Of a stretch of 64,000 nucleotides of DNA, positions 59 to 35,856 are shown piece by piece. Position 1 is the first letter of the stretch, and every line of letters starts with the position of its first letter. The notes under the pieces were generated by a model. The model saw nothing but the letters and a program-made list of their open reading frames with translations. It ran no database searches and was not told the origin of the DNA. The stretch covers positions 108,868 through 172,867 of the forward strand of contig WFMF01000381.1 of the NCBI GenBank assembly GCA_011033025.1. Reading direction: 5' to 3'. The stretch is from Beroe forskalii. Lineage: Eukaryota; Ctenophora; Nuda; Beroida; Beroidae. Position numbers and translations under genes: made by a program.

Positions 59-3000
59 CTGTGGAATGTCCCAATGGTGAGGTGTACCAGCACTGTTCCA
101 CCTCATGTGCCAGGACCTGTCAGGACAGGGACCAGGATGCCACCTGTGACAACAAGTGTATCAGGTTAGACAGCCCTTTGATAAACATGACGTATTGAAT
201 GTGATACAAGTGTATCAGGTTAGACTTCCCTTTGATAAACATGTTTTGAATGTGATGGGGTTCCTGAATCTCACGTCATTGTGACCTGCTGGTGATACGT
301 GGTTGAATGATCGGCAATCTGCTTCAAAAACCTTGCTATTGTTAGGCCATGTGAATGTTAAGGAAGCATCCGATTTATCCTTCTCTTGATATACCATATT
401 ATCGACAATCGAAATATTCGCCAGGTTTATAACCTTCCTTTACGCTTACCCTTCCTTCACAATTCCCCGATTTCAGGGGTTGCAACTGTCCCCGTGGACA
501 AGTCTACGATGAGATTGGTGGCGACTGTATCGAGGCTACAACCTGCCCATGTACCCACGATGGAAACAAATACGTGAGAACTTTTTGTACAATACAAATC
601 ATATCGTAAATTGTTAAGTCAGCAGTTACATACGGAATAAAAGGGATTGTTTACTTTCTACGATCGTCATTCATAAATAAAAGGGGATCCTTTTATTTGG
701 TGCTTATTTCTTGTTCTTTCTCCTGAGTGTTCCCTACAAGACCCCGCGCGCGAGAAATAGGCTGTTCATCGTCATCAACCCACTACATTAAACTATGATA
801 ATAACGTCATCCTACCCGCCTATTTCTCGTGTGCACCGTGTAATACATTCTCTCTGACATGCCGCCCTTTCAGGAGAACGGAGAGTCCTACACAGACAAG
901 TGCACTCAGTGCACCTGTACTGGGGGTGAGATGGTGTGTGAGCAACTTACTGAGTGTCTCCTCTCTGTTACAGACTACGCAACCTGCCAGTTCGATAGTG
1001 TCACCTACACCCACGGGCAGACTTGGTCCAGGGTAAGTGTGTGTTGGTGTCACCTACACCCACGGGCAGACTTGGTCCAGGGTTCGCTCATATCGAACAT
1101 TCAAATTTCACATCAAATCCGATCTTAGCGTTCAACTGATCACATCTTACTCTTCAAGTTTGCTCCAACTTGATCCGCTAACACCATCCATCTCAGGAAT
1201 GTAACGAGTGTACTTGTGACGATGGAATTGTCAAGTGTTCCGACTCAATGTGCCCTGGAGAGTGCTTCGCCAGTGGAGACCCCCATTACAAAACCTTCGA
1301 TGGGAACATGTACGAGTTCCAGGGATCTTGTGGATACGTCATGTCCGAGTCTAAGAGCGTCCTCAACGGACTGTCTTTCAAGGTGAGAGCTGGGAGTCAG
1401 CGCATTACGGTGGTTTTTCCTTCTCCAAAACCTCTATCTAGGTAGTAGTTGAGAACTAGACTTGTGATAACCATTGTAACTTTCTATCTCGGTGGTTGTC
1501 GAGAACCAATATTCCAGGCATGTGGTAACCATGGTAACTTTCTATCTCGGTGGTCGTCGAGAACCACTATTCCAGGCGTGTGGTAACCATGGTAACCCTC
1601 TTTCAAGGTGGTAGTTGAGAACCAGGCGTGTGGTAGCACTGGTGTAACGTGTACTAAGAGCGTTATCGTGACTCTGACTGAGAATGAGAACACTGTGACC
1701 TACACTATGCTCAAGGATAGGGAACTCACTCGACAGCTCAACGATGGACCGACCAACCTCAAGTTCTCAATCCCCACAATGACCCTGATATCGGTTAGTA
1801 CATTGTAACATTGGACCATTTGACACTTTCACTGAAAATTGCCTGCCGTCTAAAACTGTAAATTCTAATCTCTAAGCATACGATGAAACAAGCTTCCTAA
1901 AATGTGAGTATATTCACACCCAACCCTCTAACCTCAGCTGGGTTGCTGGTTGACAAGGTGGGTTTCTACCTGATGGTGGGCTGGGACCAAGGAGAGCACG
2001 GCATCAGGGTTCTCTGGAACGGTGGTACCCAGGTCTACCTGCGAGTACAGCCTGGGTGGGCTAGCAACGTGCAGGGTCTGTGTGGTAACTACAACATGGA
2101 CAAGGACGACGACTACACGCTCAAGGTAGGAATATAAAAGTCGAAATTTTATTGTGTGGTGACATTTAAGAGGGGTTTGAAATTTAGGTTGATTCTGCAG
2201 ATGAAACATAGATGAACCGTATGATTAGATTTAATGAAGGTCTTTTTGCAAATGGACCATTGATGATCTCTGAAGATTTGAAGATCTAATCTGAGCACTA
2301 TCCTTTGATCTACCCCTCTTCAGACTGGAATCGTGGATACCCCTTACCCCTTCGCTAACTCCTGGAGGACTCTGGACACCTGCTCCATTGCCACTAAGAA
2401 AGACATGACTCCCTGTGAGGAAGCTCCTCTCCGAAAGAACTTTGCTGAAACTATGTGCTCGTGAGTAGAATAGCCCTCGGTTTTATTTGAAATCGATATT
2501 TCAGTGTGGGCTGTGTTGTTGAGACTATGGCCTAAATTTTGTTTGGTAACTTTCAAATAGCATTACATGTGCTATTTGTGATATTTCAATATTTCCTGAT
2601 AATTAATAAGCGGTTACATGTCGAGTGACCGTTGCAACTTACATGGTCGGGGCGACAGCCGAGACTGATTATGACAGGCGTGCCGATTCATTATCATTAC
2701 GGTCTGGCTGAATCATGGAGTTTCAGATATACCCCGACCAGAAAAACCGACTAATATGACCAAACATCCAGTATTTCTTCTTCCAACTCGGGTCTGACCC
2801 TCGTCCGGATTCAACGCTTAAAGTAGATTTTTGAGTGTGCCTTTATGAAATCAATTTCATTTTAAGCTTTTTGCGCTTTAATTCGGTGAAGACCGTATAA
2901 CCAAACGATGAGATAACAAGCTTGCTGGGTATAATAAGTTGTACACGTGTCCAACCCCAAACTCATTGTTCATTCGAGAACTTCCCTCTGATCTTATCGA

Positions 3001-5638
3001 ATTTATTATAATTATCATGTCCTGGCAGCACCTTGTAACCTAGGTTGATAAACGATGAGATATTCGCCGGATGTCACTCCGTCATCAACCCCAAACCGTA
3101 CTACGAGAACTGTTTGTTCGACGCGTGCGGATGTGATCTGGGTGGAGACTGCATGTGTTACTGCGAGGCTATTGAGAACTATGTGAGACAGTGCATCTCT
3201 AAGGGCATTGTCATCAACTGGAGGGTCAAGACAGAGGAATGCCGTGAGTCATAGTGCTCTTTTATTCTCTGAAGGATGCTATATGCCCCTTGTGTTGATC
3301 TTGAATTGATGGATTGAAATAAATTCAACTCGTGCCTAGTATTACGAATAATGGGATCTAGGATACCTACGCATGGATATTGAACACATTAATTTAACAT
3401 TGAACCTATCAAACATCGGAGTTTGTGCCAAAATTTCTTTAATGTTTTGCTCCACACTAATTAAACTTTACCGCTTCTAACATCCCCTCAACACATTTCA
3501 GAGGTGATGTGTGAGTGGCCCAAGCAATACGTTGAGTGTGGTCCGGCCTGTCACGACGTGTGCGGCGTCAAGACCTGCAAATCCTTCACCACCAACGAGT
3601 GCTTCGAGCAGTGCGCCTGCCCTGAGGGACTCCAAGAGAACAGTGACGGACAGTGCGTGGAAATCACCTGTAAGTTGAACGAGAGCTTGGTTCCTCGTAT
3701 TGAATCATTAAGCATGCCATTATTTCTACTATTATTGCTAAAAAAAATAGTAAAATAACTCCCCCGACACTGCCATTTGTCGAGCGTGGTACTAATTGTG
3801 CAACTATCTCAGGCTCATCCCCGACTCCCCACTCTACCACAACTACATCTACCGAAACCCCCTCAACCTCAACAACGTTTACAACGTCCTTCACAACCTC
3901 CTCAAGTAAGTATGCGACGAGATTTCCACGATTGCATGAGCTCTTACATTGTCACATTTACGTCACACGCGGCGTAATAAGGACTTTTCTTTTTGACAGT
4001 TAGCGCGTTTTTCTCCATTAACTTGACATGAGCGCGCAATATTAACGAGAATTGCTCGGCTTCGTGTGAATCCGCGGGAATGAATCCAGCTATGACGATA
4101 ACCGAACTTATCACTAAAATGGTTACCTTCGTTCATGAAACTATGAAATATGTAACATTGAATATTTTACAGCAATATCCAGTACCACAACAACGATGAC
4201 GCCATCAACAATAACGCCAACCATAACGCCATCGGTGACGACTACATCTCCATCAACAACAACTCCGACGACAACGAAGTCCACATCATCAACAACACCA
4301 TATCCATCAACCACTCCCAGAACACCAACCCCAACAACTTCAACAAGCTCATCAAGCACAACAACTCCATCATCAACCTCATCAACAAGCTCAACTAGCT
4401 CATCAAGCACAACCACTCCATCTTCAACCTCATCAACTAGCTCTTCAAGCACAACCACTCCATCTTCAACCTCATCAACAAGCTCTACTAGCTCATCAAG
4501 CACAACCACTCCATCTTCAACATCATCAACAAGCTCTACAAGCTCATCAAGCACAACCACTCCATCATCAACCTCTTCAACAAGTTCTTCAAGCACAACT
4601 ACCCCATCTTCAACCAGTTCAACAAGCTCTACTAGCTCTTCAAGCACAACAACTCCATCTTCAACCTCTTCAACAAGCTCAACTAGCTCATCAAGCACAA
4701 CCACTCCATCATCAACCTCTTCAACAAGTTTGAAGGAAGAGCTTGTTGAAGAGGTTGAAGATGGTGTTGTTGTGCTTGATGAGCTTGTTGAGCTAGTTGA
4801 TGAGGTTGAAGATGGAGTTGTTGTGCTTGAAGAGCTTGTTGATGATGTTGAAGATGGAGTAGTAGTGCTTGATGAACTAGTAGAGCTAGTTGATGATGTT
4901 GAAGAAGGAGTGGTAGTGCTTGAAGAGCTTGTTGAAGAGGTTGAAGATGGTGTTGTTGTGCTTGAAGAGCTTGTTGAGCTAGTCGATGAGGTTGAAGATG
5001 GAGTAGTTGTGCTTGAAGAGCTTGTAGAGCTTGTTGATGAAGTTGAAGATGGGGTGGTTGTGCTTGAAGAGCTTGTTGAAGAGGTTGAAGATGGTGTTGT
5101 TGTGCTTGATGAGCTTGTTGAGCTAGTTGATGAAGTTGAAGATGGGGTGGTTGTGCTTGAAGAGCTTGTTGAAGAGGTTGAAGATGGTGTTGTTGTGCTT
5201 GATGAGCTTGTTGAGCTAGTTGATGAGGTTGAAGAAGGAGTAGTTGTGCTTGAAGAGCTTGTTGATGATGTTGAAGATGGAGTGGTAGTGCTTGATGAGC
5301 TAGTAGAGCTTGTTGAAGAGGTTGAAGATGGTGTTGTTGTGCTTGAAGAGCTTGTTGAGCTAGTTGATGAGGTTGAAGAAGGAGTAGTTGTGCTTGAAGA
5401 GCTTGTAGAGCTTGTTGAAGATGGGGTTGTTGTGCTTGATGAACTAGTAGAGCTTGTTGATGATGTTGAAGATGGAGTTGTAGTGCTTGATGAACTAATG
5501 GAACTTGTGGATGATGTTGAAGATGGAGTGGTTGTGCTTGAGAATCTAACAGAGCTTGTAGAAGACGTTGAAGATGGAGTTGCCGTGCTCGATGAGGTAG
5601 AGGTCGGTATGGATGTCGGTCCAGTTGTTGAAGATTGA
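59..5638 (+). CDS. M1: gel-forming-mucin-like protein (TIL-VWC-VWD-C8-TIL-Ser/Thr array), 5' end outside window
   Basis: Partial gene; its 5' part lies left of the window. Exons read from splice sites and phase: 59-164 and 477-573 (TIL-type Cys-rich), 874-1032 (VWC-like), 1197-1382 (VWC end plus VWD start, CFASGDPHYKTFDG), 1608-1793, 1938-2125 (VWD core with GLCGNYN), 2324-2460, 3044-3243 (C8, with DACGCDLGGDCMCYCEA), 3502-3669 (TIL), 3813-3905 and 4173 onward (Ser/Thr-rich). VWD-C8-TIL followed by a PTS region is the assembly of secreted gel-forming mucins and SCO-spondin-like proteins, so an extracellular polymer role is inferred. From about 4736 the last exon runs into the reverse complement of its own repeat and stays open to 5638, giving an acidic VEDGVVVLDELVE-type tail. 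The phase between exons 1608-1793 and 1938-2125 does not match cleanly. No signal peptide is visible. Confidence 0.85.
1383..1607 (+). repeat. Intron minisatellite copying the next exon's start (M1 VWD)
   Basis: About three degenerate copies of a 66-bp-scale unit fill this intron. Each resembles the junction used at 1608 (ggtggtagttgagaaccagg) followed by gtggtaaccatggtaac. The final copy supplies the real exon. Confidence 0.75.
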
Positions 5639-8600
5639 GTTGTTATGACTGAAAGAAAACTTAAATGGTAAGTATACAATATTTTTTGGTTTTATTGTAT
5701 TAGAATTAAGATTTCCAAATATGATTGCTTGCAGTTCATCATTGCTGAAGGGATTATGGCAAAAGATTCTTATCCGTGCAATTTCTACCAACTCATTCCC
5801 AGAATAATCATTTTGCTAATCCAAATTAAAGAGTTCTTGATTACCAAAATTATCTATCTGAAAAAATTGTGGGTCATCTAAATAGCTATTTGATTACTAT
5901 TCAATAACTTTAGATGCAGCTTCCGAAATAATCATGGAAATGCAGGATTAGTTTGGCTTCTTTTGTGGAGCCTACATACCTGTAGGCGTGCTGGATGAAG
6001 TAAACGTTGGGCTTGTGGTGAAGGTCGATGAAACGGTAGTTGCAGCGGTGGTGGAACTAGTTGAAGGAATACTGGAGCTGGTCGTGACTGTAAAAAGTTG
6101 TAATTAATTGGACTAGAATCATAATTTGATTATGAAATCCCCCTGTTTCCTTTCATCCTAAATCAGTTAAGACAAGTACTGTAACCATTTTCCACTTATA
6201 TAATGTCTGAATTTCTTGAATCTGGCTGACCTTGGCAAGGCGGTTCGATGCACCTTCCCTCCTCATCCTCCACCAATCCCTCCGGACAGGCGCACTGCTC
6301 GAAGCACTCTCCTGACGTGTAGTTCTTACAGGTCTTCTCCCCACAGATGTCGTGGCAAGCCGGACCACACTCCATGTAGTGCTTCGGCCATTCACACATC
6401 ACCTCTGGGGGATATCAAGCAATGGAGCGAACTATTTTAGTGTTTGTAGTTCGGATCCGGAATTGATTGGATTTCCAGCCAAATTTGGTCGCAGCCGGAT
6501 TAACAGCTTTACATATATATTCACTATTCAGCTATAATTCACTCGATGCCCAGATTGAGCTAACGCTGGACTTGTCCAGTCATTAGAGGAACCATTCAGC
6601 GACTACCGAAGGCTAAACAATTCAATTTCATTGAAATGAGGATCATCAAGACTCATTGTTGGTGAGTGTTGTAGAAGCAATGGCAAAGTACTCTCTGACT
6701 TGGTCGGAGATCGAAACCAAACTTACGGCATTCGTGAGTCTTGACTCTCCAGGGCACCACGATGCCGTGATTAGCACACTGTTTGGCGTACGTTTCAATA
6801 GCTTCACAGAAACAGAGACAGTCCCCTCCCATGTCACAGCCACAGGCGTCAAACACGCAGTTGTTGTAGAACGGGATGGGGGGCACCACAATGTGACACG
6901 CGGAGAACAGGTCCTGGTTCAGGATGCTGAAGCAGGGTGGTCATGTAGACTGTAGAGTGACGTCATTATTTTACATTAGAATAGAGAATTGACCTGTAGG
7001 ATGAGGAACTCCTTTGTCATCTTTATCAGAAAGCGAGGACGAGTAGTGTAGTTACAAACATTCTTTAATTCCCTTAATTCTGTAATCGCGATAACAACGG
7101 TATCTTAATTGTCATGATAAAAATGAGTGTTCGTAACTACAAAACTCCTCTTCGCTCTGATTGAATAGAGAATTTATGACGTAGAACCAGCGATTAATCC
7201 TGAGAATAAACTCACGAGCACATAGTTTCTGCGAATGTTTTGCGGAGGGGATGAATCTCGCAGGGTGTCAGGAGGCTCTTCTGAGCATCCGGACACGACT
7301 CCAGGAGCTTCCACTCGTTAGCAAAGGTGTAGGGAGGTTCAGACATCCCTCGCTGGGTCACGAACTCATCTGCCTTGTCCTGGTTGTAGTTTCCACACAG
7401 CCCGTGTACTTTACCGGACCATCCCGGACTTACTCTGATGTACACCTGAGAGGGTGGTTACTCAGGGAATAGTCAGGGAATCAGGTAACGAGTGGTCGAC
7501 ATGGTTGGAACTCAAGAGATTGAAGTTTGAACGGTATAACTGATGTGAGAGATTTGTAAACAGAAGCTTTCGAAAATCTTGTCGTCAGCTGGAGTATACC
7601 CAGATAACAATGTACAAAAACAAGCCCTCACCTGTGTTCCGCCGTTCCATAGCACTCTGAGACCCTGAGACCACCCAACCATGACATAGAACCCGACCCG
7701 GTCCACCAGCACATCTGAGGAATGAATTGAGAGTTGAAAGCTCGAACACAAAGAAGTCGGTGGCTGAGAATCGCATGGTAACATTGCCATAATGATTTCA
7801 ATACTAAGCATCGATTACTTTTATTAACGACTCAAATTTTAAGCATCAAAATATAAGATTCCACCAGATATTACGACGAGACAGCAGAAAAAGCAGCTTA
7901 CCGACAGCAGTATCTTTGTGAGGAAGTCCTATACTCTTCTCCCTATCCCCCTCTACCCGTGTTACTCGTATCTTTCACGAGTTGGAACGTTACCGTGTTC
8001 GAGTCCTCGGTGATGGTAACCGACACACTCTTCGTACACGTTACGCCGGTAGAGCCACACGCCTCGTTTTGGGAACTTACCTATTCCAGGAAATGGTGGT
8101 TATTCTTGAACAATAAATCCTCGGAATAGGTACTTTATGAAAAAAAAATATATGATATTATTTTATTTTAAGAAATAACTTGATTTTCACGCTTTTACTC
8201 TTCCCAGGGTGACCTGCTTGGTATTTAGATCGTAAAGAAAGTTTTTTGTCACCGGATCAGATATACCTGCGTACAAAGTTATGGACAGATCACAGAACGT
8301 TGAACTGTGTGAGTGCAAAACTAACGTCTGAAAAAAAACCCAAATCTCTTCCTAAACTCTATAACTCACAGTGAAGGTGTTGCCAGTGACGGAAGGTATG
8401 GTTTTAGAGAGAATGTAGCCACATGAACCCTGGAACTCGTACATCTCCCCATCGAATGTCTTGTAGTGAGGGTCTCCGCTCGCAAAACACTCGCCCGGAC
8501 AGAGCGCGTCCTCGCAGGTCACATGCCCGTCGAGACACAGACACGTGTTACAATCCTGCTCGGGGACACGTGTTATTTCAGCTGTGGTGAAACAACTTAG

Positions 8601-9374
8601 AGAGGCAACTTTTAATGTTATTCTTTATAAGTGCAAACATTTATACAAGCATTCAACTATAAGCATTACTAATACTAATATATCCACGGACCATATCTAA
8701 ACGATCGGCAAATGACTACTTTACAAATTAATCGCCAACTCGGCACCCGTCCGGCGCCAGTCGGTGGTATCGCCGAGTCGGCGCTTTTGCAATGTGGTCA
8801 TTTGCCCACAGTCTAGGCGAGAAAGCTTTAACACTAAAACTCAGACATTTCTTCGAGTTGGAAGAGGGCAAGAAAAAAGCTAAGGTGCAAATGTTCAAAA
8901 TCATGACTTACTCTTTTGACGGACTGCCCGGACACCAACGGCTGTCCATTGAACGTACAGGAACCTTCCGTGTCAATTTCATCTGAGAATAGATGGGATA
9001 TCTACCAGATACTGTGTCTACTTCATACTAAGTATGAAGTAGTAAATTAATTGTTCAAGAAGTCAAAGACTATCAATATTATCAATATTTCAATATTTCA
9101 ATTTACGCATTTTTGGGCCCCTACTCACTAGAACCAAATAAGCAAATACTGAAATAATGATTAATTATGACGAAGATATCTCAATACAAGATGTTTAGAT
9201 GTAGGCAATAATGTAGGAAAACCAGAAGGAGACTTTCAGCTCATATTGACACATTGACTAACCGTTGAGGGGTTGGATACTGAAAGCCCCATCATGACAG
9301 ATGTTGGTGCAAGTAACAATCCCTGCCTGACAATGGCATTCCTCACATTCCAGTACAAACTTCTCATCAGCTTC
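4141..9374 (-). CDS. M2: inverted paralogue of M1 (VWC-VWD-C8-TIL-Ser/Thr array), 5' incomplete
   Basis: Reads right to left. Exons: 9263-9374 and 8912-8982 (VWC-like), 8370-8555 (VWC end plus VWD start, CFASGDPHYKTFDG), about 7966-8080, 7632-7714, 7216-7445 (GLCGNYNQDKADEF), 6727-6926 (C8, DACGCDMGGDCLCFCEA), 6231-6404 (TIL), 5980-6087 and 5648 down to 4141 (Ser/Thr array). The TIL and C8 exons clearly match M1 but are diverged in sequence and in all intron lengths, so this is an old inverted duplication and not a recent fold-back. VWD introns differ from M1: M2 has an intron before VYIRV that M1 lacks, and lacks M1's intron between 2125 and 2324. No M1-like upstream TIL exons or signal peptide are found right of 9374. 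The gene is therefore 5' truncated, or its first exons lie beyond gene A. Likely a secreted mucin. Confidence 0.82.
4173..5648. repeat. Inverted Ser/Thr-codon array shared by the last exons of M1 and M2
   Basis: The plus strand from 4173 to about 4735 encodes SSTSSTSSSSTTTP-type repeats. The minus strand from 5648 to about 4740 encodes the same repeats. The switch point is a palindrome: tcaacctcttcaacaag just left of 4735 is answered by cttgttgaagaggttga after about a dozen bases. Units are near-identical on both arms, with 42- and 51-bp periods. Both strands are open across the whole interval, in frame with the respective upstream exons. Confidence 0.9.
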
Positions 9375-9926
9375 CTGAGAAGAGGAAGGAGTCAATGCCT
9401 CAAGGTTCAGGAAGTTAGATGAACGCAAATCAAGTCATAAAGCTAGCATAACTCAATGATAATTTGCGATCTAATTCAAATGTTCAAACAACGCTTTTTG
9501 AACCAAAATTTAAGAGAACTTTTAACAAAAATCGACATCTCTCTTTTGAATTTTCCCTACATTCAACATTGGCCATTTTCTGGAGTTTGGGAAAATGATC
9601 ACGAGACACGAAAATATCTTAAATGCAAGATCTAGCGACTTCAGAAAAAAAGGACAACCAGAAGATGTAAATTGGTAACAGGCGTTTTGTTGCAGGCGTT
9701 CGTATCCACAAAGCACAAAACACTAGCAGTAACGAAAGTTCTCGAAGGAACTGAATGTGTGTAGGGTAGTGCGCGCGCGCCTCATAATAGGTCACGTGAC
9801 ATACGCGTGACCCTTGTATTGCGTAGGATCACATTCAGTGTGTACATTGCACATTCTGTAGTTCCCGCGCTGCCTCTTTGCAGCCTGTGCGACTGACGTT
9901 TATGTTAGCTTTCCGAGTGTGTCAAA
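9375..9926. other. Gap between M2 and gene A
   Basis: No supported exon is seen. The right half is GC-richer, with alternating gcgcgcgcgc near 9770 and cacgtgac/cgcgtgac motifs. It would suit a promoter for the Ser/Thr reading frame that opens at 9927, but no core element is recognisable. Confidence 0.4.
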
Positions 9927-10982
9927 ATGCGTTCTTGCAAGACCGCCAAGGGGCAAGGAGTCTCAATCACAACCTCTTCAACAAGCTCTACAAGCTCTTC
10001 AAGCACAACTACTCCTTCTTCAACCTCATCAACTAGCTCAACAAGCTCTTCAAGCACAACAACACCATCTTCAACCTCTTCAACAAGCTCTTCAAGCACT
10101 ACCACTCCATCTTCTACCTCATCAACAAGCTCTACTAGCTCATCAAGCACTACCACTCCATCTTCAACATCATCAACAAGTTCTTCAAGCACAACTACTC
10201 CTTCTTCAACCTCATCAACTAGCTCAACAAGCTCATCAAGCACAACAACACCATCTTCAACCTCTTCAACAAGCTCATCAAGCACAACCACTCCATCTTC
10301 AACATCATCTACAAGCTCTACAAGCTCTTCAAGCACAACTACTCCATCTTCAACCTCATCGACTAGCTCAACAAGCTCTTCAAGCACAACAACACCATCT
10401 TCAACCTCTTCAACAAGCTCTTCAAGCACTACCACTCCTTCTTCAACATCATCAACTAGCTCTACTAGCTCATCAAGCACTACTACTCCATCTTCAACAT
10501 CGTCCACAAGTTCCTCGAGCACAACAACCCCATCTTCAACATCTTCTACAAGCTCTTCAAGTTCAACAACTCCATCTTCAACCTCATCAACAAGCTCTTC
10601 AAGCACAACAACTCCATCTTCAACATCATCAACAAGCTCTACTAGCTCATCAAGCACAACCACTCCATCTTCAACATCATCAACAAGCTCTACTAGCTCA
10701 TCAAGCACAACCACTCCATCTTCAACATCATCAACAAGCTCTTCAAGCACAACAACTCCATCTTCAACATCATCAACAAGCTCTACTAGCTCATCAAGCA
10801 CAACAACTCCATCTTCAACATCATCAACAAGCTCATCCATCTTCAACATCATCTTCAACAAGCTCATCAAGCACAACAACTCCATCTTCAATCATCCGCT
10901 CGCAAGCACAACAACTCCATCTTCAACATCATTTAAAATTTTCATGATAGATGCATTCTGTGCAAAATCAATGAGTCAATGA
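9927..10982 (+). CDS. Ser/Thr-rich mucin array exon, possible 5' part of gene A
   Basis: An open frame starts at ATG 9927 (MRSCKTAKGQGVS), then runs through about 320 residues of SSTSSTSSSSTTTPS repeats and ends in a short unique tail. It has no signal peptide, so either the ATG is not the true start or an upstream secretory exon is missed. A possible donor near 10960 would join in phase to the exon at 11018, linking it to gene A. The DNA unit is the same as in M1, M2 and C1. Such arrays are typical O-glycosylated PTS domains. The antisense strand and a second plus frame are also open, because the unit contains no stop in those frames. Confidence 0.5.
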   Translation: MRSCKTAKGQGVSITTSSTSSTSSSSTTTPSSTSSTSSTSSSSTTTPSSTSSTSSSSTTTPSSTSSTSSTSSSSTTTPSSTSSTSSSSTTTPSSTSSTSSTSSSSTTTPSSTSSTSSSSTTTPSSTSSTSSTSSSSTTTPSSTSSTSSTSSSSTTTPSSTSSTSSSSTTTPSSTSSTSSTSSSSTTTPSSTSSTSSSSTTTPSSTSSTSSSSSTTPSSTSSTSSSSTTTPSSTSSTSSTSSSSTTTPSSTSSTSSTSSSSTTTPSSTSSTSSSSTTTPSSTSSTSSTSSSSTTTPSSTSSTSSSIFNIIFNKLIKHNNSIFNHPLASTTTPSSTSFKIFMIDAFCAKSMSQ

Positions 10983-11017: not shown

Positions 11018-14000
11018 GTGGAGCCAGAGCTCTTGTGAGATTGGAATCCAGGCGTTCTGGAAAGACTGTTATGGAGAAACCTTTTGACATTGATCGTGGT
11101 TTTCACAAGTTTCTTGTGTCTGGGAAAGACGAATTTTCTGGATTGAAGATGTCTCTTCTCTCTTTTGACTTCTCTGAGTTGATACAAGAAACTAACGAGG
11201 TTACTCTCTCGCTTAAATTAAATTAAGAGATAGCTACCATTAATTACTTATCATGAACATTATTATAAAATCCCCTATAACCATCTAACCATTAACCAAT
11301 TGTCCATATCAATGATGCGTTTTTCATATGATGTCCAGTGACTATAAAAGTTTTCAATTCGCATCACTGCCAGGATTTGATTGTATACGACTCTGTCATT
11401 CACATGCATGCTGCGGACGTGTCTGGTTACCCAGGACGTTGGCTTGCCCAGCGGTCTGCGTTTAGACCCATCAAGAAGAACTGGGGTCAGATCGTCACTG
11501 ACTCAGGGCTCCTTACGTCCTCTGTTAATCTGGAGGTGAGTTAGATTTATGCATGCTTACAGCTTATCAGTGACCAGACACTTTACTGATGAGAAATATT
11601 GTTTGACATGGGCTTAAGTTAGTAAGTATTACCTAAACACTTTTCATGTGGAATGTGATATGGCTGGGGGTATGGCTGGGGGTATGGCTATAACTTTAGC
11701 CATCATCTAATCTACTCTAAAACAACTCATAACACACCCCAGTCAACTCATAACATACCCCTATCAACTCATAACACACCCCAGCCAACTCATAACACAC
11801 CCCTATCAACTCATAACATACCCCAGTCAACTCATAACACACCCCTATCAACTCATAACACACCCCAGCCAACTCATAACACACCCCAGTCAACTTATAA
11901 CATACCCCTATCAACTCATAACACACCCCAGCCAACTCATAACACACCACAGTCAACTCATAACATACCCCTATCAACTCATAACACACCCCTATCAACT
12001 AATAACACACCCCTATCAACTCGTAACACACCCCAGTCAACGCGTAACACACCCCAGTCAACTCATAACACACCCAAATCAACTCATAACATACCCCTCT
12101 CAACTCATAACACACCCCTATCAGCTCATAACCCACCCCTATCAACTCTTACAGACGTACTTTGGTCAATTAAATATGAGATCGCACTGTTTTCCTTATA
12201 CATAAAGCAATTGCCTTAGGCATAAAGCAAAGTCCTTATGGATAAGGAAAATGCCTTATGCGTAAGGACTTTGCCTTATAAGTTTAGGGTTTCTCTTAAA
12301 TAAGAGATTCCCTAGTTATGCATACCACCCATTGCTACACCACTCTCTCTAATTTTCACCCAGATACTTGTATACTTCTCTAGCTTGGCATAATAACGTT
12401 TCACATTTTACATGATAATCTGAATTTTACAGAACAGGACTGACGCCCTGCGAGTGTTGAAGAAGCAGCCTGATTTCGATAAGTTACTCTCCGCGAACTT
12501 CCTCAATACGCTGCGGTACTGGTTCGATCTCAGAGGACGAGACTTCTATAAGGCAAGTGGAAAATGTAAAGACTTCAGAAGACAATACATTTGTGGATCT
12601 GTCACTTCGAAAACTACAACAGTACAACAATATTCCCTGCCGTGGATTTATTCTATAGTATTAAATTTGGATGCTACCTTCAGAGTTAACAATAGTTATA
12701 TAATCATTGCAGGATAACTACGGAGTTGCAGTCGTGAACGAGTACACTAGCTACAGTTCTGAGTACACGGACGGAAAACCATTCAGGTAAGAATTGGTGC
12801 TTTCCAAAGAGGTCTTGCATCAAAATTCATAATATTATCGCAAATTTGCAATTAAATTTTGATTACTTAAGTCGGTTTTTTGACTTATTATTTGCCTCGG
12901 AAAAGAGTCCCCGGTACACCAGTCGTACGGGTCTTCTCAGTGAATCCGTTAAATCCCCGTTTGTGCTTTTTTCACAATTCTATTCTAACCTGTGTTTTTT
13001 CCAGATATTACAACTACGAGAATGTCAGCGTTAGTGAGGAGGACAGAACACCGCTGGTGGAAGTGTGCTACAAGAAGAACGTGCTCAACGTTTGCTCTGG
13101 GAACGATGTCGAGGTCAGATTTTACATAATATAGCTTTTTAAACAGCATTGCAGAATCTGGTTATAATGAGCATGAACCAGTTGGTATAGTATGGAAATA
13201 CTTCACTATTTTTCTCAAGATATGCAAGAATATGGAGTTATTCATGTTTCATTATCAGTCGGGTCACACTGTTCATTGCTTCAGCACAAGCTTTCCATAG
13301 AATTTGATCTGGTAATTGATGAGTCAGCACCTGGTGAGAACTTCGACGGGGATGGATTGGGTGTGGGCGTGGATGAAAATGGGAAGAGACAAAGAACTCT
13401 GGTGTATCTGGATCTTACTGACTTCGACAAAAGTGAGTTGTTGCATATTTTCTGTCGCAATTTGTTGTATTTATTTGACTGATCGGAATTGCTTCGCCTA
13501 TCGGTCAGTGATATTGAATGAATTGAGTTGCTCTCAATCCAACGGGTCACTATATTTCTATGAACAGTAAATTTATATCACGAGATCATGAAATTTAAGT
13601 TGAATTAGAATCATCTCAAACATGTTAATTTTTCATCAACTCATTTTATTCCTTTTTTCTATTCCAAACTAGTGAAACATGGTTTAATCTATATGAAGGA
13701 AGCATAAGAAAAATCATAAATAAATTTGGCATATTTTACCTTAAATTCGTTACAAAAATCATCGCAGTAACAGTCTTTCAAGAATATAGTCGTTTGTACA
13801 TGCTGTACACAGTAATGAGTTACAGTTTCGACGAGCAAAAATTTGCTTATCCTGGTTCAAAAGGAGAACGATACATCGGCGACTTTTGTCGGATCTTCTT
13901 TCCCATCGGTTCATTCCTTTATATGTACAGTCCACCAAATGTTATACTTTGGTTATATTTAAAGAAACTTTTTACAGAATCGAAATATCTGCTGTATTTT

Positions 14001-17000
14001 TCAAATAATCAAAAAAGTAAAAGGGGACAAGACTTTTGGCGCACCCTGTACTATCATAATACTCGCATCAAGCATCTTTAGAATAAAAAAGAGGTTTGGT
14101 ATCAACTATCAAAATCATCGTGACGATTCGATATCACCATGTTATTATTATTAAAACCAGTCAAAATCTCAGTAACTTTTGACTAAACACATCCCGCATT
14201 TGCTATGATGTTTGGTGCTTGAACAGGTAGATCCTCATATCGTCCATGCTGGAAAGCTGTCTTGCCAGATGGTGGAAGGGAAGGAGGTGCATGCTAGGGA
14301 AGACATCCGGTGTCAAGGTGGAGGCACACGCCGTATGTACCACCCTCTGCAGTCCGCAACTAATGCACGGCAGCGCCGTCACCACCGCCGTAGGCAAGGC
14401 CCGTGACACCCGCAGCATCACCTGGCACCGGGCGCCGCAGGTGGCGCACTTGGCGGTCAGGTGGTGCTCGCCCAGCTGGAGACGCTGCACTGAGAGCGGC
14501 ACTTCGTCCACCACGCCCGCCAGCCGGCCTGGGCCTGCGGAGCCCTGTCGAGGGGAGGAGGGGGAGCGTAGGATGTTGTTAGCGAGCCGTGCGGAACCCA
14601 CCATCTTCTCCGTGACGAAGGTGGTCAGGACACTCCGCACGTACACCGGACACAGGTCGGAGAAACGGCACGCGCGGAGTAGGGACTCACAGTGCTGCTT
14701 CCGGTACTGGTCAGCTGCTATCCACAGGAAGATGCTCTCAACCACCACGAACTCTGTCTCCAGCAGGTTCTCGTGTTTTATGATGCTCTTCACGGCCTGG
14801 AACTCCATGTTGCCCCATTCCCCGGATTGGATGTGCGAGATGATGCTCTCCTTGCCAGGGACTGGTATTTCCCATTTGAGGGGAAGCGCCTCTGCTGCAG
14901 CTGCTGCCTTCTCTCTGCCCCATTGCCTGCGTCTCTCATCTGCACTTCCTCCGTCCGCCTCATCCCCACCGTTAACAAGTCCTGGAGTCTCATTAATGCG
15001 GTCAACACTCACCCTTCTCTTAGACCCATCTTTTGAACCGACCTTCTCCACATCTGCCCTTGTCTATTTCAAATATCTCAACTTTAACAGCATCTGGTTT
15101 GTTTGGCTTGGCGTTCACTTCTTCAGAAGATTGTGGGGACTTTCTCACTGCTTCCTGGTAAAGAGAAGACAACTTCACCTTGTCGTCTTGACTCAGAACA
15201 TCGCCCTTCCCTATGATAAGCTGGTTAAAGATCGTGTCGTACACTTCGTTCTGCAGCCTTGACATTTCTATCTTCTTCAAGGGCAATGCCGCCAGGAGCA
15301 GCCCTGCTGCCTTGGTATTCTCGTTATTCGCCTGTAACCAAGTGACAGTGTTGGTGAATAGTTTGAAGCAGTCAAATTCTTCGTTTTTCTCTGCTTGAGT
15401 TACCAGCATGACCATTCCGTCCAGTGAGGCAGAACTTAGATCTCCCTGCTCTACCATACGAGCGAAGTTGTTTGAGCAGTATTCCTCAACAAGTTTTAGC
15501 AAATGAGGTGAAGCTTGCACCTCTGGTCTCTTGTGAAGTTGAAGAACGTTTTTTGGTGAAAGAATGCTTCCAAATCTTTCATTCAGTTGATTCACCAGCC
15601 ATTTTATCTCGAAATGATGCGCGAACTGAAGGAACTGGATGGCATTACTCCCACGGAACTGTCCTTTTAAACCACCATAAAGACTTTGAAGGATGAGCAA
15701 ACCAGTTTCTTGGGTGATATGAAGTCTCGATATGTCAAGTCGTGAAACATTGTCCGCCAGTCTCTCCTCAACTTTCTTAGCCAGAAGTCCACCTTGAGCC
15801 AGCAACACGATACGGTGACACCGGACGTTTCCGTCCGTACACGACAACACAAAGTCCGTCTCGGCTCCGGATTCCAGAAGGTGGAGTAGCCCGGAGCTAA
15901 GGGCATCAGCCCACAGGACCATGGCTTGTGTACTGCGAGTTACGAGTGCTTCAGAGGCATCTTAAAAGTTGTAGAAACGACAAAATATCAGTATAACAAG
16001 CACGCATATAAGACTCAAGTGTATTGTGTGTACTTGTGCGGGATTTTTTCTTCATTTCAAATTATCAAGTAGATTTCTCCGAGGGATTATTATGCTATCA
16101 ATAGATCTATTAATTCTCTAATTGTTTACAGCCATTTACATATAGAGTAGCTATATTTGTGACTGAGCTGGCGTGTTGCTTGTTGGATATGGAACAACTG
16201 ATTTGACTGCTGCCTGCTGAAGTAAATTTCTGCAGCTGGAACACATTTTTGTGCTGGATTTACTCGAATAGCATGCAAAGTACTTTAATTGGTTGCAAAG
16301 TTATCCGTTGTATAGAGCAGTGACAAACAACTAAACAAGCTCGGTGATAGCCAACCTGTTAAAAATCAGTTCAATCTTCTCATTTCATCATTTCAGAATA
16401 CGTAATACGGAAGGGCCACGACCATTTCCCGGCTAACGCGTGGCTCGAACTCGTTATAAACAAAACGGAAGTTTCCTACTCGGATGATCAACGCTCATTT
16501 TCCCTCTATCAGGTAGCGTGATTATGCGGAACTTTGTTGATGGTTTGAGGTTTCGCTATGATGATGAGCGAAACCTCAGTATTTTGGATCCGGAGAGCTA
16601 ACTTTTGTGTTGATTATCATCGATAACACACCCTCATAACTTATTCGGTTGTAACCGCTATCATCCATCAAGTGATTCATGGATTTGTAACCCGCGCACT
16701 GTTTTTCTATAGCTGGAGCAGCCGTTCAATGAAGCTGCTGATACTTGGAACACGCTGCAAAACATCCAGAAAAAGGAGATTGACTCAGATAGCTTTAATT
16801 CGACGGAAGAGAGGCTACCATTCACTCGAATACAGGTACCAAAAAAAACTAGTTTTATATTGGGCTATATATTGTTTCGAAATAATTCTTGTGCCCTTAC
16901 ATAATATCATGAAAAGATAGAGTTATATTTTTTCTGCAAATCATTGAACGATAATAGCAGACAAGAAGACTGAAAGTTTCCATAGTTTGATAATTTTCAT

Positions 17001-19850
17001 CGCTCAGATTCCCATGGATACAGTGGTACAGAACTGGTTGAAGTTCGGTGCTCCCAACCACGGCGTTCTGCTCTCGGATGAGGAGAGCCTTTCTCACAAC
17101 CTCTTCAGATTCTTCGACCGGCACTCCCCCATACCTGGCACTCAGCCAAGCCTGACGATCTGTATTCCCATCCCACCGACCACGCCCTCCCCACCCACCA
17201 CCAGTACATCCCGACAGACAACGACCACGCCCACCCCCACACCCAAAATAACGCCAGAAACTGGGGTGAAGTGCGAGCACAAGGAAATTCCTCCCAAGAT
17301 AATTACTATTCGTAACGAGACTAGGGAGTGCGTTACGGTGAGTGCCGAGTGGAAATTCTACGATGATAACCTCTATTAATCATATTCCAATTTTCAAATC
17401 AAATTCTTCTAGTTTTTCAAAAATTATTTCGCCGAAATTCCTTCTTTGATAGGCACCTTATAGTGGATACATGCAATTTATCATTAAAAAGTTGTAGAGG
17501 AATCATTGCGATATCCTAAATCTACTGACGGCTTCTATACCCTTTTCAGATTCTACCTTATGTAACTCGTTACTGTAGAGATATCGGTGGGGTTTGCAAG
17601 AAACAGCAGCTAAGAACCAAATACGTGAGTCCTTAACCTGAAATTCGGGGTGATTTTGAAAATGTGGACCCTCAAAAATTCTGAGAATTTTGGTTAAAAT
17701 GGTAACTTTACGATTGAGTCTCTCTTGACATCCAATTAGCGACTTCTAAACTGCACCCGTCCAATCCGCAGGGAGAAATCAACACGATATGCCAGTGTTG
17801 TCAGCCGATAATAAAACACCACCGCCGGGCAGGAGTGAAATGTATCGATCATAATACCAGCGAGCAATATTCCGATGTTAGTTGACACGGTTATTTCTTT
17901 ATCTGTACATTGATTGGAATACTGAAACTCTGTGAACGTACTGTTGTCGTGTAGTTTTCAAATGGTTTAAGCTCGCGGCAGTGCTCTTAATCTGTGAAAA
18001 CTTCTGCGTCAGTATTTTAATTTCGACTTCTACCGATAACGGGCGATAACCAATTCCTCAGTTCAATCTAATGACGCAAAAATTTGTATTTACACAGTGC
18101 ACACTATTAAGCACATATGTGTTTCAATGATCTGGTATCTCTCAGGAGATTGACATTCCATACATTGCCAAGTGTAGATGCCTGGTCTGTGCCACTAAAG
18201 AGGACACGCATCGTAAGTTTATATAGGCAAAACCATGCTGGTGGAAGTCAATAAGAGCATTTTGATTAGTAATAAATGGATTCTGGCAGCAAAATTGTTA
18301 CCTATTTTATTGCATGTGTGCTTTTATATTCCTACTTTTATCATTTGTGATTATTCGCAGTATTGATGATATATAATAGCCCTCCTCATCCCGCAGATAC
18401 CACACCGCCTATGGCTTCCAGCACGTCCCCGGTTACTTACTACTCAAGTTCCCCCGTACCCCTAACCACCGAGTCTCGGAACAACGGTCAACCAACTTCA
18501 ACCCCAGCTGAATTGTCCACCCCGGCCGCTGCTGAAAAAACTTCGACTCCGGTTGAATTGTCCACCCCGGCCGCCGCTGAAGAAACTTCGACTCCGGTTG
18601 AGTTGTCCACCCCTGCCGCTGAACAAACTTCGACTCCGGTTGAGTTGTCCACCCCTGCCGCTGAAGAAACCTCGACTCCTATAGAATTGTCCACCCCGGC
18701 CGCTGAAGAAACTTCGACTCCGGTTGAGTTGTCTACCCCTGCCGCTAAAGAAACTTCGACTCCGATAGAGTTGTCCACCCCTGCCGCTGAAGAAACTTCA
18801 ACTCCGGTTGAGTTGTCCACCCCTGCCGCTGAAGAAACTTCGACTCCGGTTGAGTTGTCCACCCCTGCCGCTGAAGAAACTTCGACTCCGGTTGAGTTGT
18901 CAACCCCTGCCGCTGAAGAAACCTCGACTCCGATAGAATTGTCCACCCCGGCGGCTGAGGAAACATCGACTCCGATAGAATTGTCCACCCCTGCCGCTGA
19001 AGAAACTTCGACTCCGGTTGAGTTGTCCACCCCTGCCGCTGAAGAAACTTCGACTCCGGTTGAATTGTCCACCCCGGCCGCTGAAGAAACTTCGACTCCG
19101 GTTGAATTGTCCACCCCTGCTGCTGAAGAAACCTCGACTCCGATAGAATTGTCCACCCCGGCCGCTGAAGAAACTTCGACTCCGGTTGAGTTGTCTACCC
19201 CTGCCGCTAAAGAAACTTCAACTCCGGTTGAGTTGTCCACCCCTGCCGCTGAACAAACTTCGACTCCGGTTGAGTTGTCCACCCCTGCCGCTGAAGAAAC
19301 TTCGACTCCGGTTGAGTTGTCCACCCCTGCCGCTGAAGAAACCTCGACTCCTATAGAATTGTCCACCCCGGCCGCTGAAGAAACTTCGACTCCGGTTGAG
19401 TTGTCCACCCCTGCCGCTGAAGAAACCTCAACTCCTATAGAATTGTCTACCCCGGCCCTTGAAGAAACCTCGACTCCGATAGAATTGTCCACCCCAGCCG
19501 CCGCTGAAGAAACTTCAACCCCGGTGGGATTGGTACACGCGGCTGCTGAAGAAAAATCGACCCCAGTTAGTTACTACACAAGCTCGCCCGTACCTCTAAC
19601 CACCGAATCTAAAAACAACGGTCAACCAACTTCGACCCAGGTAGAATTGTTCCACGCAGCCGCTGGAGATAAATCGACCCCGGTTAGTTACTACTCCAGT
19701 TCGCCCGTACCTCTAACTACTTCGACCCCAGCTGAATTACCTTCGGCCCCTCCAAAAGCGGATAATTCTTCTACCATCGAAAGAAGAGTTAGGAGTCCTG
19801 GAGAAGAAACATCAACTGCCACTCATTTGATTGCACTTAGTGATAATTGA
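11018..19850 (+). CDS. Gene A: secreted modular protein with DNRLRE-like modules, cystine knot and Pro/Thr tail
   Basis: Exons by splice sites and phase: 11018-11199, about 11339-11535, 12433-12552, 12713-12786, 13006-13113, 13285-13432, 16397-16512, 16713-16835, 17008-17337, 17550-17624, 17772-17876, 18146-18212 and 18361-19850. The first nine exons form two beta-rich modules with a recurring WL/W(V) helix followed by a NHGVLL-type strand. They are parallel to the modules of C1 and C2 and tentatively like DNRLRE/CBM96 or TGF-beta-propeptide jelly rolls. Then come a Pro/Thr linker, a cystine-knot-like region (CRDIGGVCKKQQ, ICQCCQP, CRCLVCA) and a 14-residue repeat tail. The donor at 12553 is GC, not GT. 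The phase from 11199 to 11339 is off by one. An antisense BTB gene sits in intron 13433-16396. Function is inferred as an extracellular structural or adhesive glycoprotein; the family is not firmly recognised. Confidence 0.75.
11707..12155. repeat. 21-bp tandem repeat in a gene A intron
   Basis: About 21 copies of tcaactcataacacaccccta and close variants. Its antisense open frame (GVCYELT repeats) comes from the period being a multiple of three and is not a gene. Confidence 0.95.
14203..15922 (-). CDS. BTB-BACK protein with C-terminal CxxC cluster, intronless, nested in gene A
   Basis: Starts at ATG 15922. Residues 1-110 read as a BTB domain (TDFVLSCTDGNVRCHRIVLL), then a BACK-like helical region (about 130-290) and a Ser/Lys-rich linker. 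The C-terminal part has two Cys pairs, KCATCGARC and LPCISCGLQ, which suggest a zinc ribbon. The frame switches once near 15050, at a short G run; either side is long, ungapped and protein-like, with stop at 14203-14205. The full product would be about 570 residues. BTB-BACK proteins usually act as CUL3 adaptors or scaffolds; the C-terminal zinc cluster is not one I can name. It lies antisense inside gene A intron 13433-16396 and has no introns, which is consistent with a retroposed or anciently nested gene. The frame switch may be a base-call error or a real lesion. Confidence 0.75.
18490..19530 (+). repeat. 42-bp coding repeat (TSTPVELSTPAAEE) in the gene A tail
   Basis: About 24-25 units of 14 residues, alternating V/I at position 5 and EE/KE/EQ at the end. 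A few units are 15 residues long (extra Ala). The unit is Thr/Pro-rich with regular acidic residues and suits dense O-glycosylation. It is unrelated to the Ser/Thr unit of M1, M2 and C1. Confidence 0.95.
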
Positions 19851-35000: not shown

Positions 35001-35515
35001 CTTGGGGTACTAACCAATTCACTTAGTAGGGGGTACTTGCTAAATTCTAAGTCACTTAGGGGGTACTTACTAAACCATTGCTGTGGTACTTACCAATACA
35101 CTTAGGTAATACTTATAAATTCACTTAGTCATCAAGCTCAATTCTTACGACTTTCTTTTCTTTTTTTTTCTTTTTATTCATTTATTTTTTCTTACTACTA
35201 ACATGTAACCAAATTACCTCAGTTTCAACCTCTACAAGCTCTTCAAGTACAACAACTCCTTCTTCAACTTCATCAACAAGTTCTACCAGCTCATCAAGTA
35301 CAACAACTCCATCTTCAACCTCATCAACAAGCTCCTCAAGCACAACAACTCCATCTTCAACATCATCAACAAGTTCTTCAAGCACAACAACTCCATCTTC
35401 AACATCATCAACAAGCTCAACCAGCTCATCAAGCACAACCACTCCTTCTTCAACCTCATCAACAAGCTCATCAAGCACAACCACTCCATCTTCAACCTCT
35501 TCAACAAGCTCTTGA
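32011..35515 (+). CDS. C1: tandem duplicate of C2 with Ser/Thr tail, first module exon broken
   Basis: Exons parallel C2: 32011-32180, 32341-32496, 32641-32760, 33065-33241, about 33757-33912, 34047-34161, 34334-34456, 34816-34991 and 35221-35515. Two DNRLRE-like modules end in DISDTVRSWVEED with NGVVLIDANEDEE. They then pass in phase to a Ser/Thr array that ends in a stop at 35513-35515, unlike C2, which continues to a cystine knot. In exon 1 three small deletions relative to C2 (1, 1 and 7 bases, net nine) put a TGA in frame. The other exons stay open with the same lengths as C2. Either C1 is decaying, translation starts downstream, or the G and C run lengths are miscalled. No signal peptide is located. 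Confidence 0.65.
32845..33062 (+). repeat. 14-bp repeat (cttatcacgcactt) at an acceptor, C1 intron
   Basis: About 15 copies ending directly in the acceptor at 33064. The homologous C2 intron has the same array at 36705-36988, interrupted by a duplicated 36780-36850 block. The repeat therefore forms the pyrimidine-rich tract before the exon. Confidence 0.9.
33469..33528. repeat. Near-perfect 60-bp palindrome in a C1 intron
   Basis: atgacaccacaggataatta is answered by taattttcctgtggtgtcat around a tiny loop. It is absent from the equivalent C2 intron, so it is a small foldback insertion after the duplication. Confidence 0.8.
34597..34646. repeat. Short palindrome in a C1 intron
   Basis: tacataagtacttttgtacg pairs with cgtacaaaggtacttatgta, one mismatch. 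Not seen in C2's shorter intron. Confidence 0.75.
35221..35512 (+). repeat. Ser/Thr-codon array in C1 last exon
   Basis: The same 42-51-bp DNA unit as M1, M2 and the array at 9.9-10.9 kb. C2 has only a short unique Thr/Pro linker at the equivalent position (38941-39011). Confidence 0.9.
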
Positions 35516-35856
35516 ACTTTTCCATCTGCAAGTTTTAAACAATTTTATTTTCTGAGATAATTTGTAAATATTGAATTCTTTTTGTTCTAATGCTGATCAG
35601 GAGTGTTTCCTATCACCCAATTACACTTCTATATTGCAGCCAGACTCTTTGTTCACTAATTCAATTTTTTATTTATCCAATGGATGAAACATCATTTCTT
35701 GCAACTGTTTCGCAAGATCACATAATTTGCAAGTGTGATGGATTTCAAAGATTGTCAAATTCAAGAAGGATCGGAGTGAAATTGTGCCATATAATTTATT
35801 CAAAATATTGTGTGACGTTTTTATTGATGTCATGAGGGTTTAAACGTTTGTCTCAG

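What the first reader, a model, noticed from the sequence alone, without database searches (positions are those of the whole stretch)
4173..5648. Two mucin genes collide tail to tail inside a palindrome, and each frame reads on through the other's antisense
Seen: the M1 last exon stays open through the reversed half to 5638, and the M2 last exon stays open through to 4141. Each would end in a stretch of VEDGVVVLDELVE-type acidic-hydrophobic repeats that is the exact antisense of a Ser/Thr mucin array. Inference: convergent transcripts would overlap as long perfect duplex RNA, and inversion of a PTS repeat can create a new, possibly coiled, acidic domain without breaking the frame.
Basis: partly seen in the sequence, partly recalled or inferred. 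Interest (0 to 1): 0.75.

Follow-up and report, generated by a model that had tools for sequence, protein, structure and literature searches.

The report
Flipped block between two mucin genes
The two mucin genes appear to meet head-on because a 5.2-kilobase piece of DNA is flipped around, most likely by the genome assembly, and the "acidic tail" is only what the genetic code must give when a pure serine/threonine/proline repeat is read from the opposite strand.

Summary
M1's last exon is open to 5638 and M2's (minus strand) to about 4141. "Exact antisense" and "perfect duplex" are wrong: the array arms are 71-89% complementary and the longest exact match is 35 nt. The open acidic frames need no special cause. 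In one of three antisense registers, an array of only Ser/Thr/Pro codons cannot contain a stop and can encode only D/E, L, V and G. That register is open, or nearly so, antisense to four of four arrays of this repeat in the window. Both genes being open is one coincidence of phase, about 1 in 3.

The palindrome is the left edge of a block (4736 to 9949-9966) that looks flipped. Turned back, M2's array dovetails forward into array A3 (94.8% over 309 nt, best of 6978 offsets) and on to a mucin 3' half. M2's missing 5' half lies on another contig, C968, whose end overlaps M2 and continues where the window breaks off. The block's edges lie in or beside tandem repeats. I judge an assembly mis-orientation most likely (0.6) and a real inversion plus deletion the main rival (0.25). 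I found no evidence for a functional collision or an acidic domain. No reads were available.

The parts
59..3905 (+). M1 exons in the window: TIL, VWC, VWD-C8-TIL unit, short PTS exon
   Evidence: spliced frame open (two donors chosen by hand); Pfam VWD, C8, TIL, VWC above cutoff; best PDB sequence matches FCGBP, MUC5B, VWF, MUC5AC, MUC2
4173..4730 (+). M1 PTS array exon up to the seam
4731..4735 (.). seam: five bases that belong to neither array pattern
   Evidence: 14-mer test
4736..5658 (-). M2 PTS array exon (reversed half of the palindrome)
4736..5638 (+). acidic D/E/V/L/G read-through frame of M1; its stop overlaps the only Gln codon of the M2 exon
5975..9374 (-). other M2 exons, paralogous to M1's (short PTS, TIL, C8, VWD, VWC); the VWD exon changes frame near 7.95 kb
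   Evidence: (VWD above cutoff); short PTS exon end read by eye
4736..9966 (.). block that appears flipped relative to both neighbours; right edge between 9949 (blastn) and 9966 (by eye)
   Evidence: one search does not support the extension to 9966
9967..10932 (+). A3: PTS array that starts abruptly with no clear splice acceptor (by eye) and carries the best forward dovetail to M2's array
11018..19850 (+). 3' half of a mucin: exon in phase with A3, cystine-knot-like exons with two alternative ends, 42-nt PTS array
35216..35512 (+). A4: fourth array of the same repeat, also with an open antisense frame

Best explanation
The palindrome is the left breakpoint of a block of about 5.2 kb (4736 to 9949-9966) that stands in the wrong orientation. 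Turned round, the block is the middle of one mucin gene, M2: its 5' half (VWD domains) is on contig C968, its VWD-C8-TIL-PTS part is the block, and its PTS array runs into array A3 and on to the 3' half at 11-20 kb. The likeliest cause is assembly: a repeat-bounded piece (PTS array on one side; on the other a spot that in C968 borders a 37-40-bp minisatellite) placed the wrong way round between two array-ended sequences, possibly from two haplotypes. The open acidic frames are a by-product. In the antisense register that pairs base 3 of one codon with bases 1-2 of the next, Ser(TCN) reads D/E, Ser(AGY) reads L, Thr reads V, Pro reads G, and a stop needs a Gln, His, Tyr or stop codon on the sense strand. 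Shown: the code rule, the dovetail, the C968 overlap and its break, the repeats at the edges. Inferred: that these pieces are one gene, and that assembly, not biology, made the flip.
For: Code rule. That register has no stop over M1 and A4 and one stop each over M2 and A3, near an array end; it is also open over the different array at 18.5-19.6 kb. C968:32871-34354 matches window 9949-8540 reversed at 84%, and C968:34707-34913 (its very end) matches 8575-8366 at 93%, 98.4% over 64 aa. C968 upstream carries exons colinear with M1's 5' exons: ten hits in ascending order from C968 16974/C449 99459 to C968 34721/C449 110061, plus cross-hits among repeated domains, some weak (E up to 1e-4). C968:21899-23799 has no second copy (1 match), and the TIL exon query finds only M1, M2 and a third paralogue (3 places), so C968 and M2 look like two halves of one gene. 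M2's array end dovetails forward into A3's start: 94.8% over 309 nt, rank 1 of 6978 diagonals; 88.9% over 639 nt, rank 2; longest shared exact run 158 nt against 68 for M1-A3. The M2 and A3 frames agree at the dovetail, and 2 of 3 GT sites tested after A3 splice openly to the 11018 exon. C968 has minisatellites of 37 and 40 bp on either side of its inserted element, the second ending at about C968 32860, next to the break at 32871. In print, assembled mucin array lengths differ widely between assemblies (PMC9712336, passages seen).
Against: No reads, coverage or second assembly could be seen. The window has no N, and there were no N runs in 275,878 letters of fetched, partly overlapping loci, so it is not an obvious scaffold gap. 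C968 and the block differ by 7-16%, too much for the same haplotype and high for alleles; C968 may be a close paralogue. A control region (56.2-58.2 kb) has no second copy, so kept haplotypes are not shown to be general here. The extension of the C968 match from 9949 to 9966 rests on ten bases seen by eye; a 14-mer of the C968 minisatellite allowing 2 mismatches finds nothing there. In one gapped dovetail scoring the best M2-to-A3 overlap is longer and weaker (83.9% over 889), and the reverse A3-to-M2 overlap scores nearly as high (454 against 501.5). M1 is left without a 3' half, which this model does not explain.
Confidence: 0.6

Rival explanations
1. A real inversion with loss of flanking DNA in the sequenced haplotype: the block flipped, M2's 5' half and M1's 3' half were lost or moved, and C968 shows the other, intact haplotype.
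For: Both joins are without N, with five filler bases at the seam. M2's VWD exon changes frame, as in a decaying copy. Another inverted tandem array lies at 49493-50273 in this contig, so inverted arrays may be common here.
Against: A plain inversion does not do it: M2's 5' half (about 16 kb on C968) is also missing from the part of C449 read (58868-172867). The edges fall in or beside repeats, the usual place for misjoins.
Confidence: 0.25
2. A fragment of M2 was copied, inverted, into M1's PTS array. M1, A3 and the 11-20 kb 3' half were one gene, now split by the insert.
For: Would give M1 its 3' half. An M1-to-A3 dovetail exists (82.9% over 415 nt).
Against: A3 is closer to M2's array than to M1's. 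An intact M2 with its own TIL exon should exist elsewhere and was not found (3 places).
Confidence: 0.08
3. One reading: two real convergent mucin genes whose transcripts overlap and whose acidic tails are made and used.
For: Both frames open; no AATAAA or ATTAAA before the seam.
Against: Openness follows from the code and is one coincidence of about 1 in 3. M2 lacks 5' exons and changes frame in its VWD exon. Longest exact duplex 35 nt. No convincing relative of the acidic frame in the PDB.
Confidence: 0.04
4. A fold-back (hairpin) read artefact: one molecule read forward and then back.
For: Near-palindromic seam, 22 of 23 bases paired across a 13-base loop (by eye).
Against: The two arms would be near identical over their length. 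They are 71-89% alike and run out into different paralogous exons (71% aa in the TIL exon).
Confidence: 0.02

Closest known systems
Gel-forming mucin / FCGBP / VWF family (VWD-C8-TIL units plus PTS arrays)
   Same: M1 carries TIL, VWC, VWD, C8, TIL and Ser/Thr/Pro arrays; best PDB sequence matches are FCGBP, MUC5B, VWF, MUC5AC and MUC2
   Different: Each gene is a fragment in this assembly; the cystine-knot end is only weakly matched; PTS array joined to an inverted paralogous array
Assembly errors in mucin PTS arrays
   Same: PTS arrays are known to differ in length or be missing between assemblies: human MUC2 mucin exon 4471-8994 bases across assemblies, absent in one (PMC9712336, passages)
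   Different: Here the suspected error is orientation of a block, not length; that paper's text has no occurrence of 'inversion' or 'misassembl'
Antisense open frames from codon composition (Ohno-type argument; recalled, not read)
   Same: Sense codon choice fixes which antisense register is stop-free
   Different: For Ser/Thr/Pro-only arrays it holds for every codon choice and gives a D/E/L/V/G alphabet. Three paper searches (listings only) and passages of PMC10400600 did not show this statement for mucins; the library is partial
Cis-natural antisense gene pairs (tail to tail)
   Same: Convergent exons drawn overlapping
   Different: No transcript evidence here; block probably flipped

Membership tests
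Gel-forming mucin (VWD mucin) | VWD-C8-TIL units | tested here: met
   Pfam VWD 5.1e-29, C8 1.4e-19, TIL 1.3e-12 on spliced M1
Gel-forming mucin (VWD mucin) | long Ser/Thr/Pro (PTS) repeat exon | tested here: met
   93-98% S/T/P in four arrays
Gel-forming mucin (VWD mucin) | several N-terminal VWD units | tested here: inconclusive
   further VWD-like exons at C449:106565 (E 3.8e-4) upstream of M1 and at C968:20240 (E 3.2e-5), colinear exons; that they belong to the same genes is inferred
Gel-forming mucin (VWD mucin) | C-terminal cystine knot in the same gene | tested here: inconclusive
   Cys_knot E 0.006, SBSPON_C E 0.03, both under the curated cutoff; linkage to M2 is inferred
Gel-forming mucin (VWD mucin) | secretion signal, O-glycosylation, multimerisation | not tested
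   signal peptide not looked for; the others need experiments
Convergent overlapping gene pair (cis-NAT) | two intact genes tail to tail | tested here: not met
   M2 has no 5' half beyond 9949-9966 and changes frame in its VWD exon; no 3' half found for M1 besides the one at 11-20 kb
Convergent overlapping gene pair (cis-NAT) | overlapping transcripts | not testable with these tools
   no RNA data
Perfect palindrome / hairpin artefact | near-identical arms | tested here: not met
   71-89%, longest exact 35 nt
Mis-oriented assembly block | edges in or beside repeats, and flipping restores neighbours | tested here: met
   the exact right edge is uncertain
Mis-oriented assembly block | reads contradict the joins | not testable with these tools
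   no reads held

The most novel reading that the evidence does not exclude
The inversion is real and perhaps polymorphic, and it shows a general route to new protein: any pure Ser/Thr/Pro mucin array is readable from both strands, so about one inversion in three inside such an array swaps a glycosylated tail for a D/E/V/L/G tail with no stop, and tail-to-tail mucins may be made this way.
Probability: 0.1. Interest if true: 0.6.

Novelty: not a real feature. Interest (0 to 1): 0.22.

Why it matters
It is a caution for genome reading. A long open frame antisense to a pure Ser/Thr/Pro repeat is forced by the genetic code and should not be called a gene on that ground, and an inverted PTS array can mark a flipped assembly block. 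If the inversion were real, mucin arrays would be a direct test bed for how inversion makes new coding sequence.

Tried and rejected
Hairpin-read artefact: rejected, arms too different. Simple inversion alone: rejected, M2's 5' half is also missing from the part of C449 read. A second close copy elsewhere of M1's TIL exon by DNA (itself and M2), of the C968 5' stretch, of the 3' half or of the control region: none found. (C968:31000-32869) led away: it is a high-copy element with 926 matches. Pfam on ten single open frames gave a hit above cutoff only for VWD; seven of the ten had no family at all, six of them from 12-35 kb, where I had suspected a DNRLRE-like domain (a recalled name). The third paralogue M0 (C449 75.6-78 kb, minus) did not give a complete gene to compare with. 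Extension of the C968 match to 9966: not supported. Species not identified. No structure was predicted for the acidic frame: folding it alone would not bear on whether it exists.

Corrected on checking against the calls: the count of inverted array pairs, the number of AG/GT exons, the span of the open-frame control, the minisatellite unit (37-40 bp, not 34), the right edge of the block, the count of Pfam blanks, and the status of the several-VWD test.
Full report
What is there. The window is the end of contig C449 of a 216-Mb genome in 1134 contigs; intron-bearing genes make it a eukaryote. M1 runs on the plus strand. Ten exons with AG/GT borders from 59, then the PTS exon from 4173, give one frame of 995 codons that stops at 5638; two donors were chosen by hand to keep the frame, after a first set failed. 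Its unit is TIL, VWC, VWD, C8, TIL, nearest by sequence in the PDB to FCGBP, MUC5B, VWF, MUC5AC and MUC2. M2 lies on the minus strand with paralogous exons (71% aa in the TIL exon). Their Ser/Thr/Pro exons meet at 4731-4735.

What is not there. The two halves are not exact antisense. Of 26 inverted pairs 25 were shown, 24 of them array pairs, 71-89% complementary, and the longest exact match is 35 nt. So there is no long perfect RNA duplex and no hairpin-read artefact.

Why the frames stay open. I enumerated all pairs of Ser, Thr and Pro codons. In the antisense register that reads base 3 of one codon with bases 1-2 of the next, no stop is possible. Ser(TCN) becomes D or E, Ser(AGY) becomes L, Thr becomes V, Pro becomes G. 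A stop needs a sense codon for Gln, His, Tyr or stop. SSTTTPSST-type repeats must therefore read as VEDGVVVLDELVE-type repeats. In the four arrays of this repeat that register has 0, 1, 1 and 0 stops (M1, M2, A3, A4), the single stops lying near an array end. The M1 read-through stops at 5636-5638, on the only Gln codon of the M2 exon (5637-5635); that exon has no His or Tyr. A different PTS array at 18.5-19.6 kb also has an open antisense frame. Both genes being open is one fact, since the shift in register is the same seen from either side. If phase at the seam is random its chance is about 1 in 3 (reasoning, not a call).

Where the palindrome comes from. The 38 matches to the repeat unit listed by the genome search (up to 2 mismatches) lie on C449, in four arrays (the tool calls its counts lower bounds). 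Array A3 starts at about 9967 on the plus strand with no clear acceptor and no upstream exon that I could see. It is closest to M2's array: exact shared run 158 nt against 68 with M1. M2's array end dovetails forward into A3's start at 94.8% over 309 nt, best of 6978 diagonals with at least 250 nt of overlap, and 88.9% over 639 nt, second best; blastn gives window 4736-5045 against 10279-9970, 95.5% over 310. The frames agree at that dovetail, and 2 of 3 GT sites tested after A3 splice openly to the exon at 11018, though both donors look weak.

The other edge. The last 2 kb of contig C968 (ending at 34913) match M2 from 9949 to 8366 (84% and 93%; 98.4% over 64 aa). By eye ten more bases agree near 9966, but a 14-mer test does not support this. 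In C968 the break at 32871 lies next to a 40-bp minisatellite ending at about 32860, kin to a 37-bp one beyond an inserted high-copy element. Further up, C968 carries exons colinear with M1's 5' exons, which M2 lacks on C449. One 1.9-kb stretch of these, C968:21899-23799, is single copy, and no TIL exon was found to continue C968 other than M1, M2 and M0. The 3' half at 11-20 kb is also single: 8 of 10 matches are the source itself, and two weak ones lie at about 33 and 37 kb of the window. The simplest reading is that C968, the block and A3 plus the 3' half are one gene, with the block turned round in C449.

Assembly or biology. For assembly: the block is bounded by a PTS array and a spot beside a minisatellite, both neighbours end in arrays, and C968 contradicts the right-hand join. 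Human mucin arrays are known to assemble with differing lengths (PMC9712336, passages). For biology: no N at the joins, filler bases at the seam, a change of frame in M2's VWD exon (an error or a missed splice are not excluded), another inverted array at 49.5-50.3 kb. Against a haplotype story: the control region has no second copy, and C968 is 7-16% different. I put assembly at 0.6, real inversion plus deletion at 0.25, insertion of an M2 copy into M1 at 0.08, and the functional collision at 0.04. That the block is flipped against its neighbours, for whatever cause, I hold at about 0.85.

Against my reading. The gapped dovetail scoring gives M2-to-A3 501.5 and the reverse A3-to-M2 454, so direction rests mainly on the high-identity overlap. 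M1's missing 3' half is unexplained. The cystine-knot call is weak: Cys_knot E 0.006 and SBSPON_C E 0.03, both under cutoff. The right edge is uncertain by 17 bases. C968:1-12999 and C449:1-58867 were not read.

Literature. Five searches gave listings; passages of two papers were seen. None of these showed the antisense rule stated for mucin arrays; the library is partial and the rule may well be in print. The Ohno line of argument is recalled, not read.

Noticed in passing
window 49493-50273: A second inverted tandem array: arms 49493-49793 and 50273-49977 at 94%, repeat unit about 11 nt. Inverted arrays occur at least twice in this window.
   Followed up: no
C968:27646-32769 (in L038): High-copy element with 926 matches in the genome search, often in inverted pairs a few kb apart, flanked by 37- and 40-bp minisatellites; looks like a fold-back element with long inverted arms.
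   Followed up: partly
C449:65537-67694 and 102072-104220 (L040 and L003): 2.2-kb direct duplication at 98.2%, 36.5 kb apart, one copy upstream of M1.
   Followed up: no
window 31798-35128 and 35643-38824: Tandem duplication in three aligned pieces at 80-89%, the copies lying on either side of array A4.
   Followed up: no
window 7902-8068 (minus): M2 VWD exon changes reading frame inside the exon: sequencing error, missed splice or decaying copy.
   Followed up: partly
window 17772-17885 and 18146-18212: Two alternative cystine-knot-like end exons after the same exon; one ends at a stop, the other leads towards a 42-nt PTS array.
   Followed up: partly
window 9908-10891 and 35185-35544 (minus): Long open acidic frames antisense to arrays A3 (328 aa) and A4 (120 aa), explained by the same code rule.
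   Followed up: yes
L037 positions 290-740 (C968): Repeats of a tgtaacacgtgtcccc-like unit beside the VWD exon, where C968 and the window differ most (seen by eye; gap in the match).
   Followed up: no
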